From positions 1-6,585 of the forward strand of contig JAFGOG010000587.1 in NCBI GenBank assembly GCA_016926595.1: a DNA stretch of 6,585 bases, written 5' to 3'. The notes under the pieces were generated by a model. It worked only from the letters and a program-made list of their open reading frames with translations. It made no database searches and was not told the DNA's origin. Of the stretch, positions 1 through 6,585 are shown one piece after another. How positions within the stretch are numbered: position 1 is the first letter of the stretch; the number at the start of each line of letters is the position of its first letter. Both the position numbers and the translations under genes were made by a program. The stretch comes from Anaerolineae bacterium. GTDB taxonomy: Bacteria > Chloroflexota > Anaerolineae > JAAYZQ01.

Positions 1-1639
1 AAGCGACGCTCTCGCCGCGCTGGCGGGCCATGTCCAGGCCATCGTTCCAATCAGCGCCCTCCAGGCGGATAATGTTGTGCTCGCCGACGTGAAAGAAGGC
101 GGTGAGATGCTGCACCAGCAGGTGCTCGAGGATGCTGCCGCGATAAATGCTTCCCGTGTTGGTTCGCAGCTCAGTGCCATCCTCGGGACACCAGGTCTCG
201 TCAACGGTCTGGGCACGGTGCGTCCAGGGGTCCTTGAAATAGGCCTGCTCCTCGAGTAGGAAGGCCAGGTCCCCACTGTGATCCAGGTAGAGCTGGGTGG
301 TGAGCAGGGGCCATGCTCCGTGATCCATCCACACCCGGGGGATGTCGTTGCGATCGGCCCGGAATTCGCCTGGCGCATCGCCGATGATGGTTGCGTTGCT
401 GCCATCAAGGCGGATCCCGGCAAAGCTACTGAAAAGCCGCTCGCGGACCTCGCCGGGCTCCATGAGGATCAAGGCCAACTGGTCCTGCCATAGGTCCCGC
501 CAGCCGCGACCCCCACGGCCATAGTCGTGGTAGGGCAGGAACGAGTTGCCGCAAATGCGGCGCAGGATTGGCTGGAGGGTGACCCACTTCAGCCACCCGC
601 TTAGGCGCGCCTCACCAAGATCCAGTTGCAGCGATGCCAGCTTCTGCTCCCAATAAGCTCTGGTCCGGTTCAGCCAGATTTCGAATCGGGCTTGGTCGCC
701 GTAGCGAGCCATGATTGCTTCTGCGTCCGCATTCTGATCCAGGATAGCCAGCACGAGCACGTAAGCCTGGCGTTGGCCCGGTTCGAGTGTGATTGGACGG
801 AAGCGCAAGCCGCCCATTGCTTCGTAGCCAGACAGGATCTGTCCTGCACCGAGGCCTGGATTGTCCGGGCTTACCACGGCTTGCGGCCAGTCGAGGCTGC
901 CGCCCGGGCCGATAAAGGTCTCCAGCAGTGGGAAGAAGGCGGCCGGAATCGTACCGTCCCCCTCTGCACCGAGCACGGCATAGGTCACGGTGTTGGGCCG
1001 GTGCCCGCGTTCGTCAAAGGTCAGGGTGGGCTGCACCAGGACACCGTACGGATGGGTATAGATCCGGTGCAATAGGGAGGTCACGTGACGATGGTCGCGC
1101 ACTCGGTCGGCCGAGCGGCCATAGATGGGGATGGCTGCGGTGGGGGTCAAGGTCAGCGGCGCTGAACCCACGTTCATCAGCACTACTTGCATCAGCTCGA
1201 CCAAGCTGGCCTCTGCCGGTAGATTCGCGCCCGAGGGCACAAAATTTGTGATCTCGGCTTGTAGGCCGAGCCCAGGATTGGTGCGCGTCACCCGGTGCCA
1301 GAGGAATCCGGCCTGCAATCCCACCGGCTCGGCATCCTCGACCGCAGAGTTCTGGGCGATCTGCCGCGCCGAGTTGCCCGTGGCTGACCAGGGTCCATAG
1401 CCCGCTACATTGACCCAGAAATTCCGGGCTGCCCGCGAAATGTGCAGATCCTCGACCGAGACGGGTACCGTGAGGAACCTGTGCTGCCCGGCCTTGACAT
1501 CGCCATGCAGCGTAGGTGTAACGACTGCTACCAGCCCCCCTTCGTTTACCAGCGGAAAATAGAGGTAGTTATGGCGCTGTGGATCGGACAGGGCAAACGT
1601 GCCCTGATCGTCAGTGAATCCCCAATTCGCCTTGCACAT
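1..1639 (-). CDS. GH94 glycoside phosphorylase, N-terminal 546 codons (candidate laminaribiose phosphorylase), 3' end outside window
   Basis: Seen: an uninterrupted minus-strand frame from ATG at 1639 to the window edge, 546 codons. The protein starts MCKANWGFTDDQGTF, then NYLYFPLVNEGG, TPTLHGDVKAGQ and SRAARNFW, the N-terminal beta-sandwich of GH94 enzymes. An (alpha/alpha)6 catalytic domain begins near residue 345 with YHDYGRGGRGWRDLWQD (370-386), the GH94 substrate-site motif. GADWNDGLD (528-536) carries the catalytic general acid, Asp533 of W-N-D, at nt 41-43. There is no signal peptide, so it is cytoplasmic. Known: GH94 enzymes phosphorolyse a beta-glucosidic bond with inversion, giving alpha-glucose-1-phosphate; members are commonly 800-900 residues or more, so roughly the last third (phosphate site, C-terminal sandwich) is missing. 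Inferred: the N-terminal sequence and the GH16 laminarinase and GH161-like neighbours favour laminaribiose phosphorylase; cellobiose or another beta-glucobiose is possible. The start is fixed by an in-frame TGA at 1652-1654 and a good Shine-Dalgarno. Confidence 0.93.
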   Translation of the reverse strand, partial: MCKANWGFTDDQGTFALSDPQRHNYLYFPLVNEGGLVAVVTPTLHGDVKAGQHRFLTVPVSVEDLHISRAARNFWVNVAGYGPWSATGNSARQIAQNSAVEDAEPVGLQAGFLWHRVTRTNPGLGLQAEITNFVPSGANLPAEASLVELMQVVLMNVGSAPLTLTPTAAIPIYGRSADRVRDHRHVTSLLHRIYTHPYGVLVQPTLTFDERGHRPNTVTYAVLGAEGDGTIPAAFFPLLETFIGPGGSLDWPQAVVSPDNPGLGAGQILSGYEAMGGLRFRPITLEPGQRQAYVLVLAILDQNADAEAIMARYGDQARFEIWLNRTRAYWEQKLASLQLDLGEARLSGWLKWVTLQPILRRICGNSFLPYHDYGRGGRGWRDLWQDQLALILMEPGEVRERLFSSFAGIRLDGSNATIIGDAPGEFRADRNDIPRVWMDHGAWPLLTTQLYLDHSGDLAFLLEEQAYFKDPWTHRAQTVDETWCPEDGTELRTNTGSIYRGSILEHLLVQHLTAFFHVGEHNIIRLEGADWNDGLDMARQRGESVA

Positions 1640-1708
1640 CTCTCTGTCCTTTCAATGTATCTCTGTATCATCTCAAAAAGTCGGGGTGGGATGTAGGGCG
1701 GATTATGT
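1640..1708 (-). other. 69-nt gap between the two phosphorylase genes
   Basis: The gap is short, has no stem-loop before its single run of five T (1675-1679, minus strand) and no clear promoter. The two phosphorylase genes are therefore probably co-transcribed, with the GH94 gene translated from its own ribosome binding site. This is inference from spacing. Confidence 0.55.
1647..1652 (-). promoter_or_regulatory. Ribosome binding site of the GH94 gene
   Basis: On the minus strand AAAGGA lies 7 nt before the ATG at 1639. It is the best Shine-Dalgarno in the window and, with the in-frame TGA just upstream (1652-1654), it settles the start codon. Confidence 0.75.
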
Positions 1709-4700
1709 CTATTCAGTATGGAAAAAGATGTCTATCTTGGTGATCTGCCGAGCCCGCACCATCCGCGCATAGGGTTCGCCGATCATACCCTCGGCAAACT
1801 CGACGTGCCTCCCATCGGGCAGGTGCAGGACCAGGGGCCCCGTGACCAGCCCATTGTTGGGATAGATATCCCGCCGGTCAGGGTTGTGATAGGTGACTGG
1901 CACCTGTCCCAGAAAGGTAAAGGTGAGCTTGCCGTCTTGGTCGAACAGCCAGCCTGGCAGCGCGGGCCGGAATTGGAGGCAGAGCGCCTCGTTTTGCAGG
2001 AAAAAGGGCTGCCCTCCAGCCATCATCGTGGTCCATATGCTCAGGAATTCGGCTGTTGCTCCGCTCAACCGGGCCACGAAGCCAGCCCCATGCAGCAATT
2101 CGTCGGGATGGGCGCTGCTGACCAGAAACGACGAGTTTTCGAGGGGGCTTCGGCCATATACCTGCGGATCCTGGAAACAGACCAATGCGTGCTCGAACTC
2201 CTCAAAGAATTCCTCGTACAGGCCCGCTTGCAGGACTTCCAGCAGATACTTGTACTCCATGTGCAGCCAGATCGACTCGTTCTCCAGCCAGCCCGGCGTA
2301 AAGGCCCGGGCGCGGCCGATCTCGGGGATCTGGTCCTCTAGCGGAGCGTTGACTTGGTACATGCCCAGTTTGCGGTCATACAGGTCGCTGGCTTTGATCT
2401 TGGCATACAGCTCCCGGGCCGAGGCAAGGTCCGGTTGCAATTTGAGAGCGTGGACTGGGCCTTCGAGGTACAGGGGGAGCACCGCTGGCTCGAACCCTCT
2501 GGCCCGGACGAAGGGCCGGCCCTGCTCGTCGCACCGCGGCTCCCCGTTGGCGTCAGTGATCAAGTCATAGTCGGTGACAGTGTAAATAAAGTAAGTCGGC
2601 GGGATACCGGGCGACGCGCCTTGGTTCATCTCGACAGCGCGTTGAATACCGGCGCGCACCTTGGCCCGGAAGGCAGCCAGAGTCGGCGCCAAGTCCTCAA
2701 AGGGCAGCATCCTGGTCTCCCCGTCAAAGCCCAAGCGGACAGACGCGCGGTAGGTTTCACGGGCGCTGGCGACGGCGTCCCAGTAGCGGAAATCCCGGTC
2801 CGGGCCGTCCGATGCCAGCCAGCTCACCAGGGCGCCCAATATCTCTAGCAACAGGGTGTGTTGTTCGGCTGGCATTCCGACCGCGTCCAGGTTCTTCTCG
2901 GCCATCGCTTCCAGCAGGAACGTGAGCAGTCGCTCCAGCTCGTAGGTTTCACAAAGCGACGAGCCGAACAGGCCTGGCAGGCCGTTGAGTGCATCGCACC
3001 AGCTCGGCTTGCCCGCCTCCATCTCTACGCCCATGCCCAGCGGATCGAGGGTGGCGAATTTGAGCAGGGCCAGGCCCACCAGCTTGCCCAAGACCGTTGT
3101 GCGATACACCTCGCCCTGGCCGTGCGCCGTTCGCACCAGGTTGGGGGACTCGGTGCGACTAGCGATCAAGGCCCCCTTCTCCTCGTCCTCCACCACCGCC
3201 CCATACTGGCGCACCCGGCCCTCGCCGGCGAGCACGTACTTGAGAGCGCGGGGTTGAACGATCACCGGGCTGTCAAAGAAGGAGACGCCCCGACCGCCAA
3301 ACAATAGCTCCTCCTTTCGCTCGGGGTAGACGGCCAGGTAGGTCTCGATCAGATCGAGGTTGTAGGTCCAGTGGTCGATCCAGTAGCCCTCACCCACTGC
3401 GGCCTGGAAGTGGTGTTCTGCGTGGCTCAGGGCCTCAGCAACCAAGGCTTTGGGGCTGCCTTTCAGCCCAATCTCCCTGTCAGTGATGGTCCGTAGAAGC
3501 TGACCCGGTGTGAAGGGTTGAGCGAGCACCGGCTCCAGCTCCTCCGGCCGCTCGGCCAGGGCCAGCACAGCCGCGTGCAGAGAGGCCGGCAAGGTGAAGC
3601 GACTGCCTTCCACCACCAGCGGATTATAACCATCAGCCTGGATCAGGCTCAGGAAAGACAAGACATTGAAAGTACCCACCTCTGGCCGGAGCAGTACGTC
3701 GCAGCGCCGGTTCTGGTTCACATCGCGATAGTTCGCATTTCCGTGCGAATAGGGCTCAGCAGCCAGGTAAAAGTAGTTATAGTCCCGCTCCAGATCACCA
3801 TGCTTGCGCGAGTAGATGTAATAGACGGGGGGTTCCTTCTCGCCCCCCAGGAGAAGGGGCCAGCCACCGCGCAGCACGTTGTCGAGGAAGGTCTGGCGTG
3901 TGTAGGCGTCGAGACGGGGCGATGAAGTGTGGGTGGCGACGGCGTCGGTGAGTTGGTCAACCAATTGCCTGGCTTCCTGGCGCTTTTGCTGCACGTAGGC
4001 TGGTTGGGCCAGGCGTGGCTTCTCGCGGAGGATACGTTCGGCGTGACCAGCATGGCCGATGATGGCATACAGCGTCGCCGCCTCCCCTGGCTCCAGGACC
4101 TGGCTCGCGCCGAAAAGGCCGCAAGGCGTCCGGCCAGTGGTGATCTGGCGTCTGCGACCCAGGTCATCCAAAGGCTGGGCGACAAAGCCGTCCGGTGTGC
4201 AAAGGGAAGTATTCTGACCAAACACGACAACCGGATCCACAAAGGGCAATAGCTTCTGCCCCGAGCTGTCAAAAGAGAGGTAGAAGTGGCCTGCCTGAAC
4301 TTGGCTGATCTCGGCCGAATCCCCGGCGCTGGCCTGGAAGCGATAAAAGGGCAATCCATCGTCCAGGTTCAAGACCGCCATAAAGGCCTCGAGCGTGCGG
4401 CCTATTTCTTTCAGACCCCAGTTATCTACACCGAAAGGCATGACCCGGGCCATACCATCCAAAAGCTCGAGGGCCAGCGCTTCACTGCCCACGTTGGTCA
4501 CCGTTACCTGGCGCACCAATCCGGCAAATGGCTCGCCGGACAGAGTGAAGTAGAGAACCTGGCTCTGAATGCCGTGGATCCGGCTAGTAGCGTGCAGCTC
4601 CAGCTCGTTCATGCCGATGCACATCCGTGTGTCCTCGCCTACATTTGCTGGGGCAAAGGGCTCGTAGAGCACCTCCTCCACGCCGCGCTTGACTTTTAGA

Positions 4701-4945
4701 AAGGTACGAAAGCCAGCATAGGGTGTGCCTTGGTATGCTTTGTTGGCCGGCTCGAACTCCATGATCGGGTTGTCCTTGTTCTCGATCCCAAAGCTGGCGA
4801 TGGCCTGGCCGCGGTTGACGTAGAATACCCACATCGGAATGCCGAGCGGCCCGGCGATGCCTGGCAGGAAACTCGAAAAGGGGCGCGCCCGGCCAAAGTC
4901 GCGCAGGATGAAACGCCCCTGGCCATCGAAGAAAGTGTCATCCAT
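1709..4945 (-). CDS. GH161-like inverting glycoside phosphorylase (candidate beta-1,3-oligoglucan phosphorylase)
   Basis: Seen: a complete 1078-residue protein without signal peptide or membrane segment. Residues 1-310 look like an N-terminal beta-sandwich (PFSSFLPGIAG at 22-32), 315-345 a helical linker, about 346-985 an (alpha/alpha)6 catalytic domain, and 990-1078 a C-terminal beta-sandwich. NANYRDVNQNRRCDV (403-417) corresponds to the GH94 G-[FW]-R-D-x-x-Q-D motif. PSWCDALNGLPG (647-658) matches GH94 DWNDGMN, making Asp651 the likely general acid. SGATAEF (961-967) matches the GH94 TGTA phosphate-site loop. Known: GH94, GH149 and GH161 share this fold and chemistry, releasing alpha-glucose-1-phosphate; GH149 and GH161 are long members acting on beta-1,3-glucans. 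Inferred: the size, the altered motifs and the GH16 laminarinase and GH94 neighbours favour GH161 on laminari-oligosaccharides longer than the disaccharide. GH149 or an untested GH94-like branch is the alternative; such proteins are often labelled 'cellobiose phosphorylase'. An in-frame TGA at 4955-4957 constrains the ATG start. Confidence 0.88.
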   Translation of the reverse strand: MDDTFFDGQGRFILRDFGRARPFSSFLPGIAGPLGIPMWVFYVNRGQAIASFGIENKDNPIMEFEPANKAYQGTPYAGFRTFLKVKRGVEEVLYEPFAPANVGEDTRMCIGMNELELHATSRIHGIQSQVLYFTLSGEPFAGLVRQVTVTNVGSEALALELLDGMARVMPFGVDNWGLKEIGRTLEAFMAVLNLDDGLPFYRFQASAGDSAEISQVQAGHFYLSFDSSGQKLLPFVDPVVVFGQNTSLCTPDGFVAQPLDDLGRRRQITTGRTPCGLFGASQVLEPGEAATLYAIIGHAGHAERILREKPRLAQPAYVQQKRQEARQLVDQLTDAVATHTSSPRLDAYTRQTFLDNVLRGGWPLLLGGEKEPPVYYIYSRKHGDLERDYNYFYLAAEPYSHGNANYRDVNQNRRCDVLLRPEVGTFNVLSFLSLIQADGYNPLVVEGSRFTLPASLHAAVLALAERPEELEPVLAQPFTPGQLLRTITDREIGLKGSPKALVAEALSHAEHHFQAAVGEGYWIDHWTYNLDLIETYLAVYPERKEELLFGGRGVSFFDSPVIVQPRALKYVLAGEGRVRQYGAVVEDEEKGALIASRTESPNLVRTAHGQGEVYRTTVLGKLVGLALLKFATLDPLGMGVEMEAGKPSWCDALNGLPGLFGSSLCETYELERLLTFLLEAMAEKNLDAVGMPAEQHTLLLEILGALVSWLASDGPDRDFRYWDAVASARETYRASVRLGFDGETRMLPFEDLAPTLAAFRAKVRAGIQRAVEMNQGASPGIPPTYFIYTVTDYDLITDANGEPRCDEQGRPFVRARGFEPAVLPLYLEGPVHALKLQPDLASARELYAKIKASDLYDRKLGMYQVNAPLEDQIPEIGRARAFTPGWLENESIWLHMEYKYLLEVLQAGLYEEFFEEFEHALVCFQDPQVYGRSPLENSSFLVSSAHPDELLHGAGFVARLSGATAEFLSIWTTMMAGGQPFFLQNEALCLQFRPALPGWLFDQDGKLTFTFLGQVPVTYHNPDRRDIYPNNGLVTGPLVLHLPDGRHVEFAEGMIGEPYARMVRARQITKIDIFFHTE

Positions 4946-5132: not shown

Positions 5133-6585
5133 CTATCCCTGCTTGCCGACCAGTGGCAGGTAGTAGTGGTGCATAGGCACCTCTGCCTCCAGGCTCACCT
5201 GGTCCAGATAGAACGCCCCGTTGCCTGTCACCGGCAGCTTGAAGCCATAGCCCCCTACTTCCGTCAGCCCCAGGCCGTCGTTGGGTGCACCTGCCGGCTG
5301 CTCCGCACTGCGTGTCAGCGCGTCGAACCGCACCGTGATTTTCTTCCAACCGGCAAAGTTGTCCACGAACGACGTCTCGAAACGTTCGGCCGTTTCGGCC
5401 GCCTGGTACACACGCACATAGTCGATGTGCATCGTCTGCGGGAAGGTCGTCGTGTCGTCGGGGTAACCGGGCCAGTTGCCGCCGACGGCGACATTCAGTA
5501 GTAGGTAGAAGGGATGGTCGTATACCCATTCCATACCTGCCGGGATGTCGTCTACCGTCGCCGTAAAGTAGTTGGTGTCGTCGATGAACCACCGGATCAG
5601 ATCGGGCTCCCACTCGATGGCGTACGTGTGGAACGCGTCCGACAGGTTTCCGGTGGGCAGGTTGTACGCACCGCCGATGCCGCTGCCCCCCGAGTAGCCC
5701 GGGCCGTGGATGGTACCGTGCACCGTTGCCGGCTCGCTGCCAATGTTCTCCATGATGTCGATCTCACCACACGCGGGCCAGTCGGCTTCACCGATGTCGT
5801 TGCCCAACGACCACCACGCCGGCCACACGCCCTGCCCGTACGGGATCTTGAGACGCGCTTCGATCCGCCCGTAGGCGAACTCGGCCTTGTTCGAGGTCAG
5901 CAGCCGCGCCGACGTGTACTCGCACGGCCCGTACCAGCACAGCAGATCCGTGGTTGTCGTGTCCACCGCCCGGGCTGTGATCACCAGGTTGCCCAGGCCG
6001 TCGGCCGCCACGTTGTCAGGGCTATCGGTATAGTATTCCAGCTCGCCGTTGCCCCAGCCTGGGATGCCATTCAGCCCGCCGTCGCCGATCTCGTGCGACC
6101 ATTTGCTGGGGTCGGGCAGGGTTCCAGCCGCGTCGTCGAACTCGTCACTCCAGGCCAGCACCCAGTCCTCCGGCGCCACATCGCCCGTGGTCGCCGCCTG
6201 GTTGTCATACACCTGCACCGTGATCGTGTCGCCGCTGTTGGTACCATAGTACCAGAAGCTGAGGCCCTCGTAGCTGCTCCAGTCCTGACTCTCGGCAAAG
6301 GTCCGGCCAAAGCCAAGGCCGGCCGCAGCGCGGATCGTGTCGCCATACGCTACCGATAGTACCTGCTCATACACACCCTGCCCCGGCACTGCCATGCCCG
6401 TCCCGGTCATGATCTCGACGATGTCGAGCATGACGCTCCCGGTGACAGCGTAGCTGTGTGCGCCTTCAAAGTCGTCCAGCAGGTCGGGATCCTCGATGTC
6501 GTCGTCCTCGATCGTCAGGATGGCCCGTCGCAGAAAGCCCAACGTGGCGCTCACCGGGTCCGAGAGGTGAAGCGCGATGCGTTCG
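5133..6585 (-). CDS. Secreted multidomain endo-1,3-beta-glucanase (GH16 laminarinase), 5' end outside window
   Basis: Seen (numbering from the GTG at 6554, residue 1): the frame stays open to the window edge and the ten upstream codons read ERIALHLSDP, joining SATLG...LTIEDDD as the end of a Calx-beta domain. The GTG has no Shine-Dalgarno or signal peptide after it and is not the real start. Residues 23-120 and 388-457 resemble two halves of one carbohydrate-binding beta-sandwich. Between them, about 131-385, is a GH16 domain: SDEFD, GWGNGELEYYT, YTSARL, YGRIEARLKIP, and GEIDIMEN (263-270) with nucleophile Glu264, Asp266 and acid/base Glu269, then GGNWPGYPDD and MHIDYVRVY. The E-x-D-x-x-E spacing and the CGEIDIME context are typical of laminarinases rather than lichenases. 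The protein ends in MHHYYLPLVGKQG. Known: GH16 laminarinases cut internal beta-1,3-glucan bonds with retention. Inferred: it is exported and supplies oligosaccharides to the phosphorylases encoded downstream. The signal peptide should lie upstream of the window. Confidence 0.95.
   Translation of the reverse strand, partial: ERIALHLSDPVSATLGFLRRAILTIEDDDIEDPDLLDDFEGAHSYAVTGSVMLDIVEIMTGTGMAVPGQGVYEQVLSVAYGDTIRAAAGLGFGRTFAESQDWSSYEGLSFWYYGTNSGDTITVQVYDNQAATTGDVAPEDWVLAWSDEFDDAAGTLPDPSKWSHEIGDGGLNGIPGWGNGELEYYTDSPDNVAADGLGNLVITARAVDTTTTDLLCWYGPCEYTSARLLTSNKAEFAYGRIEARLKIPYGQGVWPAWWSLGNDIGEADWPACGEIDIMENIGSEPATVHGTIHGPGYSGGSGIGGAYNLPTGNLSDAFHTYAIEWEPDLIRWFIDDTNYFTATVDDIPAGMEWVYDHPFYLLLNVAVGGNWPGYPDDTTTFPQTMHIDYVRVYQAAETAERFETSFVDNFAGWKKITVRFDALTRSAEQPAGAPNDGLGLTEVGGYGFKLPVTGNGAFYLDQVSLEAEVPMHHYYLPLVGKQG

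What the first reader, a model, noticed from the sequence alone, without database searches (positions are those of the whole stretch)
5184..6488. GH16 catalytic domain apparently inserted inside a single carbohydrate-binding beta-sandwich
The segment before the GH16 domain (DDFEG... to SFWYYGTNSGDTITVQVYDN) looks like the first half of a CBM11-like jelly roll, and the segment after it (ERFETSFVDNFAGWKKITVRF ... GAFYLDQVSL) looks like the second half: the strand after 'VQVYDN' in such domains is normally the 'F...F.D.F.GWK.I.I.F' strand. Neither half looks complete alone. A nested enzyme within a binding module would hold the catalytic cleft rigidly against the glucan, unlike the usual beads-on-a-string layout.
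Basis: inference. Interest (0 to 1): 0.72.

Follow-up and report, generated by a model that had tools for sequence, protein, structure and literature searches.

The report
Glucan-cutting enzyme nested inside sugar-binding domain
A bacterial enzyme domain of the kind that cuts beta-1,3-glucan sits in one loop of a sugar-binding domain, so that the binding domain is built from two pieces of sequence on either side of the enzyme; relatives in three phyla share this layout, but what it does for the enzyme is untested.

Summary
On the minus strand, the frame 6584..5133 (5' end off the contig) reads: Calx-beta tail, first part of a CBM11 domain (6482-6186), complete GH16 domain (6185-5403), last part of the same CBM11 (5402-5184). 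A profile of 81 uninterrupted CBM11 copies from homologues is matched at 30-115 by one half and 119-188 by the other; joined they score 133.9 bits, against 50.5 and 71.5 apart and 67.7 swapped. AlphaFold2 gives pLDDT 91.3, pTM 0.88; a full-length homologue shows matching strand order in intact and split copies. Both halves flank GH16 in 119 of 121 proteins held (the two misses are truncated) and in 42 of 42 best loci, from Chloroflexota, Deinococcota and Actinomycetota. The 44 split CBM11s fall on one side of one branch, so one ancient insertion is the simplest reading. Downstream genes encode GH161-type and laminaribiose-phosphorylase-like enzymes. Function is less sure: split copies lack aromatic positions that intact copies conserve, so the shell may be a mount more than a binder. 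New variant of a known kind.

The parts
6498..6584 (-). C-terminal end of a Calx-beta domain (ERIALHLSDPVSATLGFLRRAILTIEDDD); the frame continues beyond the right end of the window
   Evidence: sequence; Calx-beta (PF03160) at the same place in homologues P0004, P0008, P0061 and P0063
6186..6482 (-). first part of the split CBM11 (P0001 residues 25-123): strands up to TITVQVYD and the following loop
   Evidence: Pfam CBM_11 14-102/182, E 2.1e-4 alone; profile of intact copies 30-115, 50.5 bits; ten-residue pLDDT means 88-97 except one of 66
5403..6185 (-). complete GH16 catalytic domain (laminarinase / endo-beta-1,3-glucanase type), P0001 residues 124-384
5748..5765 (-). GH16 catalytic motif EIDIME (residues 274-279 of the 483-residue frame); roles of the residues recalled
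   Evidence: E274, D276, E279 invariant in A1; pattern GE.D..E in 118 of 118 inserts (a narrower pattern gave 108 of 118)
5184..5402 (-). second part of the split CBM11 (P0001 residues 385-457): strands RFETSFVD, WKKITVRFD, GYGFKLP, GAFYLDQVSLE
   Evidence: Pfam CBM_11 109-179/182, E 2.6e-9 alone; profile of intact copies 119-188, 71.5 bits; ten-residue pLDDT means 83-98
5133..5183 (-). C-terminal tail EVPMHHYYLPLVGKQG and stop
   Evidence: sequence; pLDDT under 50 over residues 470-483
1709..4945 (-). downstream gene: GH161-type phosphorylase, 1078 aa, same direction
   Evidence: 902.4 bits to 9qqk (named gh161 phosphorylase) and 903.5 to 9h8v (named cellobiose phosphorylase by its depositors)
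2..1639 (-). next gene, runs off the left end: GH94, laminaribiose-phosphorylase-like
   Evidence: 713.8 bits to laminaribiose phosphorylase 6ggy; Pfam GH94 E 4.7e-11

Best explanation
The gene encodes a multidomain laminarinase (exported, by inference) whose GH16 catalytic domain is inserted into one loop of a single CBM11 beta-sandwich, between the strand TITVQVYD and the strand RFETSFVD. It most likely arose once, when a GH16 domain landed in the last of a row of CBM11 domains, and the gene then spread within and between phyla. Shown by sequence: the halves are complementary, collinear and kept together, and GH16 is complete. Supported by prediction: the two halves make one sandwich and GH16 has a defined place on it. 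Inferred: intact N-terminal CBM11 copies do the targeting to beta-glucan; GH16, held by two short connections, cuts beta-1,3-glucan into oligosaccharides that the GH161-type and laminaribiose-phosphorylase-like enzymes phosphorolyse. I think the split copy works mainly as a rigid mount that fixes GH16 relative to the row of binding modules, its own glucan binding being reduced or changed. That last step is the least certain: about 0.55 for mount over binder.
For: Split profile matches and controls. Intact copies in the same proteins as a built-in reference. AlphaFold2 of the window protein, pLDDT 91.3, pTM 0.88, and of full-length P0033, pLDDT 86.0, pTM 0.75: intact copy 107-115, 130-139, 144-150, 169-177, 182-189 | 201-208, 212-220, 243-251, 257-269; split copy 408-414, 429-436, 441-450, 457-465, 470-477 | GH16 | 749-756, 760-768, 792-798, 804-813. 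GH16 complete by structure comparison. Halves kept together in 119 of 121 proteins and in L001-L042. One branch separates 44 split from 86 intact CBM11s, SH-aLRT 99; nested GH16s as one clade not rejected, p-AU 0.536. Downstream phosphorylases, with kin of the GH161-type gene in 5 of 43 nested loci and 0 of 37 others.
Against: No experimental structure; coordinates of the models were not available, so contacts between the halves were not measured. PDB fold searches were filled by GH16 entries, so the fold of the shell was not confirmed by structure. Short strands 89-92 and 225-227 of the intact copy in P0033 have no listed counterpart in the split copy. In the 89-row GH16 tree the label needs 4 changes and starred branches force at least 3; with two rows dropped it needs 2, so GH16 alone does not show a single origin. 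All trees were of the 'quick' kind, with long-branch warnings. The loci are ranked by likeness to the window, and the scan patterns include stretches of the Calx-beta and CBM11 parts, which favours the nested type. 38 of 43 nested loci show no GH161-type gene in the DNA held, some of it short.
Confidence: 0.78

Rival explanations
1. Same architecture, but the split CBM11 is a true binding module: its groove and the GH16 cleft lie side by side and grip one glucan chain.
For: Core CBM11 motifs are kept in the split copies (QDWS, FW, ER[FW], GW, GAPxDG). In the alignment the insertion loop falls at about residues 92-100 of C. thermocellum CBM11, and D99 there is a ligand contact (recalled, not found in print here). 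In MtGlu5, of reverse layout, substrate binding by both domains is proposed (PMC9063844, passages). pTM 0.88 suggests a fixed placement.
Against: 44 of 44 split copies lack the segments that hold F21/W24 and W81 of the intact reference; position 66 (aromatic in 48 of 48 intact copies) is aromatic in 0 of 44, and position 89 falls from 100% to 41% aromatic (F, W, Y or H; positions 66 and 89 depend on the alignment). Whether these are ligand contacts is unknown.
Confidence: 0.33
2. Two separate CBM-type domains flank GH16 (beads on a string), as Pfam stretches on both sides might be read.
For: CBM_11 is reported in two or more stretches in the window protein and in four homologues scanned.
Against: The halves match complementary parts of the profile, with medians of 84 and 68.5 of 190 positions in 118 rows, and 119 of 121 proteins show the pair. 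Joined they give a single stretch, and swapped order loses the gain.
Confidence: 0.02
3. Assembly artefact or a one-off fusion in this contig.
For: The window is one 6,585-base contig and no whole genome is held for it.
Against: Separate assemblies of isolates and metagenomes in three phyla carry the same layout.
Confidence: 0.005

Closest known systems
Uninterrupted CBM11 (PF03425), e.g. C. thermocellum CtCBM11 (1v0a)
   Same: Profile match over the cut-off; the intact relatives align with 1v0a residues 62-169, E 1.7e-6, including the loop in question
   Different: CtCBM11 is contiguous; here 261 residues of GH16 sit in one loop, and two short segments of the intact homologues are missing
GH16 laminarinases (Thermotoga 3azx and 4dfs, Nocardiopsis 2hyk)
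   Same: Complete catalytic domain, about 57% identity
   Different: Those structures are free catalytic domains; here the domain is anchored at both ends in a CBM11
MtGlu5, GH5 with an inserted CBM29-like module (PMC9063844, passages read)
   Same: CBM and catalytic domain nested rather than in line
   Different: Reverse topology: the CBM is inserted in the catalytic domain
TgLaforin split CBM20 (PMC9254107, passages read; its authors call it the first reported split CBM)
   Same: One CBM built from discontinuous sequence
   Different: Interrupted by long, largely unstructured linkers; the phosphatase domain lies after the CBM, not in it
GH70 glucansucrases, U-shaped chain (PMC4919382, passages read)
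   Same: Outer domains IV and V made of N- and C-terminal segments around the catalytic core
   Different: Different folds and chemistry; all domains but C are discontinuous there, whereas here one whole enzyme domain sits in one CBM loop

Membership tests
CBM11 (PF03425) | Profile match over the curated cut-off | tested here: met
   56.2 bits for the whole frame, 67.8 joined, cut-off 27
CBM11 (PF03425) | One contiguous stretch (Pfam model of 182 positions) | tested here: not met
   Split by 261 residues; hence called a split variant
CBM11 (PF03425) | CBM11 beta-sandwich fold | tested here: inconclusive
   Predicted strands follow those of the intact copy, save two short ones, but the PDB lists shown hold only GH16 entries
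CBM11 (PF03425) | Binding of beta-glucan in the cleft | not testable with these tools
   Needs a binding assay; loss of conserved aromatics makes it doubtful for the split copy
GH16 | ExDxxE catalytic motif | tested here: met
   EIDIME; pattern GE.D..E in 118 of 118 inserts
GH16 | Complete GH16 fold | tested here: met
GH16 | Endo-beta-1,3-glucanase activity | not testable with these tools
   Inferred from kin and neighbours

The most novel reading that the evidence does not exclude
A single ancient insertion of a GH16 enzyme into one CBM11 copy turned a binding module into a two-point mount: the shell gave up sugar-contact aromatics, kept its core, and now fixes the catalytic cleft at a set angle to the row of intact CBM11 modules. 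This would be a laminarinase design, kept across three phyla, that beads-on-a-string models do not cover, with intact modules in the same protein as a natural control.
Probability: 0.4. Interest if true: 0.65.

Novelty: new variant of a known kind. Interest (0 to 1): 0.5.

Why it matters
Carbohydrate-active enzymes are usually drawn as independent modules on flexible linkers (general knowledge). Here what looks like one evolutionary event made a lasting exception, with the uninterrupted form of the host domain in the same polypeptide. That makes it testable what fixed coupling does to an endo-glucanase, and it offers a template for building fused enzymes. It also means that tools counting CBM hits may record one split module as two.

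Tried and rejected
Beads on a string was rejected by profile complementarity and swapped-order controls. Chance likeness of GH16 flanks was rejected because no CBM11 match was found in the GH16 frames of L044-L080. No whole genome is held for the window. PDB fold searches with both models gave lists of 50 rows that were all GH16-type entries, so a CBM11 structure could not show; this says nothing about the shell's fold. Searching one intact CBM11 gave only weak hits to 1v0a (E 0.07; E 0.005); a profile was needed (E 1.7e-6, residues 62-169 only), so the N-terminal part of CtCBM11 could not be aligned. I found no list of CtCBM11 ligand residues (search listings; passages of PMC5849603, 12 of 22 places shown). 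PMC10956234 (passages) uses 'disruptive' for a CBM that disturbs curdlan gel, and its passages do not mention nesting. Ten paper searches listed no paper whose title or abstract start describes a GH16 nested in a CBM11. Several lists were capped (20 of 3,221; 15 of the 23 papers holding both names, with passages of four read), and the library lacks most subscription papers, so absence from print is not shown. A look for CBM11 hosting other enzymes: CBM11 was searched in 301 genomes of the phylum of G001, 111 of that of G003 and 396 of that of G002, but only the loci and two regions of G003 were examined by profile; no other enzyme in a CBM11 was seen there, and the hits were seen as tables only. 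From the second GH16 tree two rows were dropped: L014_1126 (end branch over 7) and L043 (only the first half detected by profile).

Full report
What is there. The finding lies in a minus-strand frame from 6584 (open, contig end) to 5133. From the right: the end of a Calx-beta domain, the sequence DLLDDFEG...TITVQVYDNQAATT (6482-6186), a GH16 domain (6185-5403), AAETAERFETSFVDNFAGWKK...GAFYLDQVSLEA (5402-5184), and a short tail.

Is it one domain in two pieces? Pfam CBM_11 finds both pieces in the whole frame (E 5.8e-15). Alone, the first covers profile 14-102 (21.9 bits, under the cut-off of 27) and the second 109-179 (37.8 bits); joined, with GH16 taken out, they give one stretch, 14-179 of 182, 67.8 bits; in swapped order 57.1 bits in two stretches. 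A better reference is inside the homologues: 81 of the 121 proteins held have an intact N-terminal CBM11. A profile of these is matched by the window's first half at 30-115 (50.5 bits), by the second at 119-188 (71.5 bits), and by the join at 30-188 with 133.9 bits, the junction aligned without a gap: dNrnpdstgddaerwsyrf against DNQAATTAAETAERFETSF. Over 118 rows (of 119 split ones; the duplicate window row P0003 was left out) the mean scores were 113.4 joined, 38.8 and 64.6 for the halves, 61.4 swapped, and 38.1 and 62.5 with the second or the first half shuffled. The join beat the better half by more than 20 bits in 116 of 118, and covered at least 150 model positions in 79 of 118.

Structure. 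AlphaFold2 of the 483-residue frame with 57 homologues gave mean pLDDT 91.3 and pTM 0.88. The four strands after GH16 have ten-residue means of 83-98, hard to explain if they did not pack on the first half (inference). pTM 0.88 also suggests a defined placement of GH16 relative to the shell (inference: GH16 is about 54% of the chain). In the full-length homologue P0033 (pLDDT 86.0, pTM 0.75) the strands of the intact and the split CBM11 come in the same order, save two short strands of the intact copy (89-92 and 225-227) without a listed counterpart, and GH16 sits at the place of the loop 190-200 of the intact copy. In the window protein about 5 residues lie between the last GH16 strand (383-394) and the next CBM11 strand (400-407), and about 14 between 120-127 and the first GH16 strand (142-147).

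Spread and history. In the 80 best of 548 genome loci, ranked by likeness to the window, each of L001-L042 has both halves around a GH16, and L012 has a second such gene. L043 (Deinococcales) has the first half by profile and a diverged tail in which I see the second half by eye only. The GH16 frames of L044-L080 show no CBM11 match. Nested rows come from Chloroflexota, Deinococcota (Trueperaceae) and Actinomycetota (Microbacteriaceae). In 301 genomes drawn from the phylum of G001 (the Anaerolineae genome of L002) 9 had CBM11 at E 1e-5; 5 of the 9 show both halves around GH16, one more shows the first half and GH16 up to the end of the locus, and in the other three the CBM11 hits are not beside GH16. 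The quick tree of CBM11 domains (44 split, 86 intact) puts the split copies on one side of one branch, SH-aLRT 99, with warnings of long branches among single rows. For GH16, the quick tree of 89 rows needed 4 changes of label, with at least 3 forced by starred branches; after dropping L014_1126 and L043 the 87-row tree needed 2, and holding the nested GH16s together was not rejected (p-AU 0.536). One insertion is the simplest reading; losses or a second gain cannot be excluded.

Function. The next genes encode a GH161-type phosphorylase (902.4 bits to 9qqk) and a laminaribiose-phosphorylase-like GH94 enzyme (713.8 bits to 6ggy). Kin of the first lie in 5 of 43 nested loci and 0 of 37 others, of the second in 2 of 43 and 0 of 37, so the linkage recurs but is not general in the DNA held. 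The likely path is: laminarinase cuts beta-1,3-glucan outside the cell, and oligosaccharides are taken up and phosphorolysed (inference from families; GH161 activity recalled). Whether the split CBM11 binds sugar is open. Against 48 intact copies (those over 175 residues, of 86), the 44 split ones keep core positions (W95, W136, F143, F146, E123, R124, R148, GAPxDG). All 44 lack the segments with F21 and W24 and with W81 (79-100% aromatic in intact copies), have no aromatic at 66 (100% in intact) and 41% instead of 100% at 89 (numbering of the L012 intact copy; F, W, Y and H counted). This suits a shell kept for its fold. It does not prove loss of binding, because I could not place these residues in a ligand-bound structure.

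Against what is known. Nested or discontinuous binding domains are known: a CBM29-like module inside GH5 (PMC9063844, passages read), discontinuous domains in GH70 (PMC4919382, passages read), and a split CBM20 in TgLaforin that its authors call the first reported split CBM (PMC9254107, passages read). An enzyme domain inside a single CBM jelly roll was not seen in the listings of ten searches of the held library (named under Tried and rejected), which is not proof of absence. I file it as a new variant of a known kind: CBM11 by profile but not by contiguity, GH16 in full.

Noticed in passing
window 2-4945, minus strand: Two phosphorylase genes follow in the same direction: GH161-type (NCBIfam gives only a weak GH149 hit, 70.4 bits against a cut-off of 1150) and laminaribiose-phosphorylase-like GH94; probably a beta-1,3-glucan operon.
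   Followed up: partly
L111 (G003 C1), minus-strand frame of 1211 residues, residues about 711-816: A second laminarinase of a Trueperaceae genome has a further stretch of about 105 residues inside the first part of its CBM11 (profile 2-61 and 64-114 lie apart), so that this CBM11 seems cut twice; 104 residues of the stretch match no Pfam family at E 1. The end of the frame is masked, so its second half was not seen.
   Followed up: partly
L096 and L102: In two other genomes of the same phylum an uninterrupted CBM11-like domain is in one frame with a protein kinase domain.
   Followed up: no
window 5133-5183: The C-terminal tail HHYYLPLVGKQG resembles those of P0002 (YHYYLPLIGKQG) and P0004 (IYLPLIPTE); it may be an export or anchoring tail (impression, not tested).
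   Followed up: no
L003, L005, L007, L014, L017: Stand-alone GH16 frames lie close to the nested one; six of the seven group with other stand-alone GH16s in the tree, the seventh (L014_1126) is a very long branch.
   Followed up: partly
L012, minus strand, 1288-residue frame: A second nested laminarinase in this locus, in which a CBM11 match (713-862) comes only a few residues before the match of the split copy (865-956), whose first half lacks about 44 model positions.
   Followed up: no
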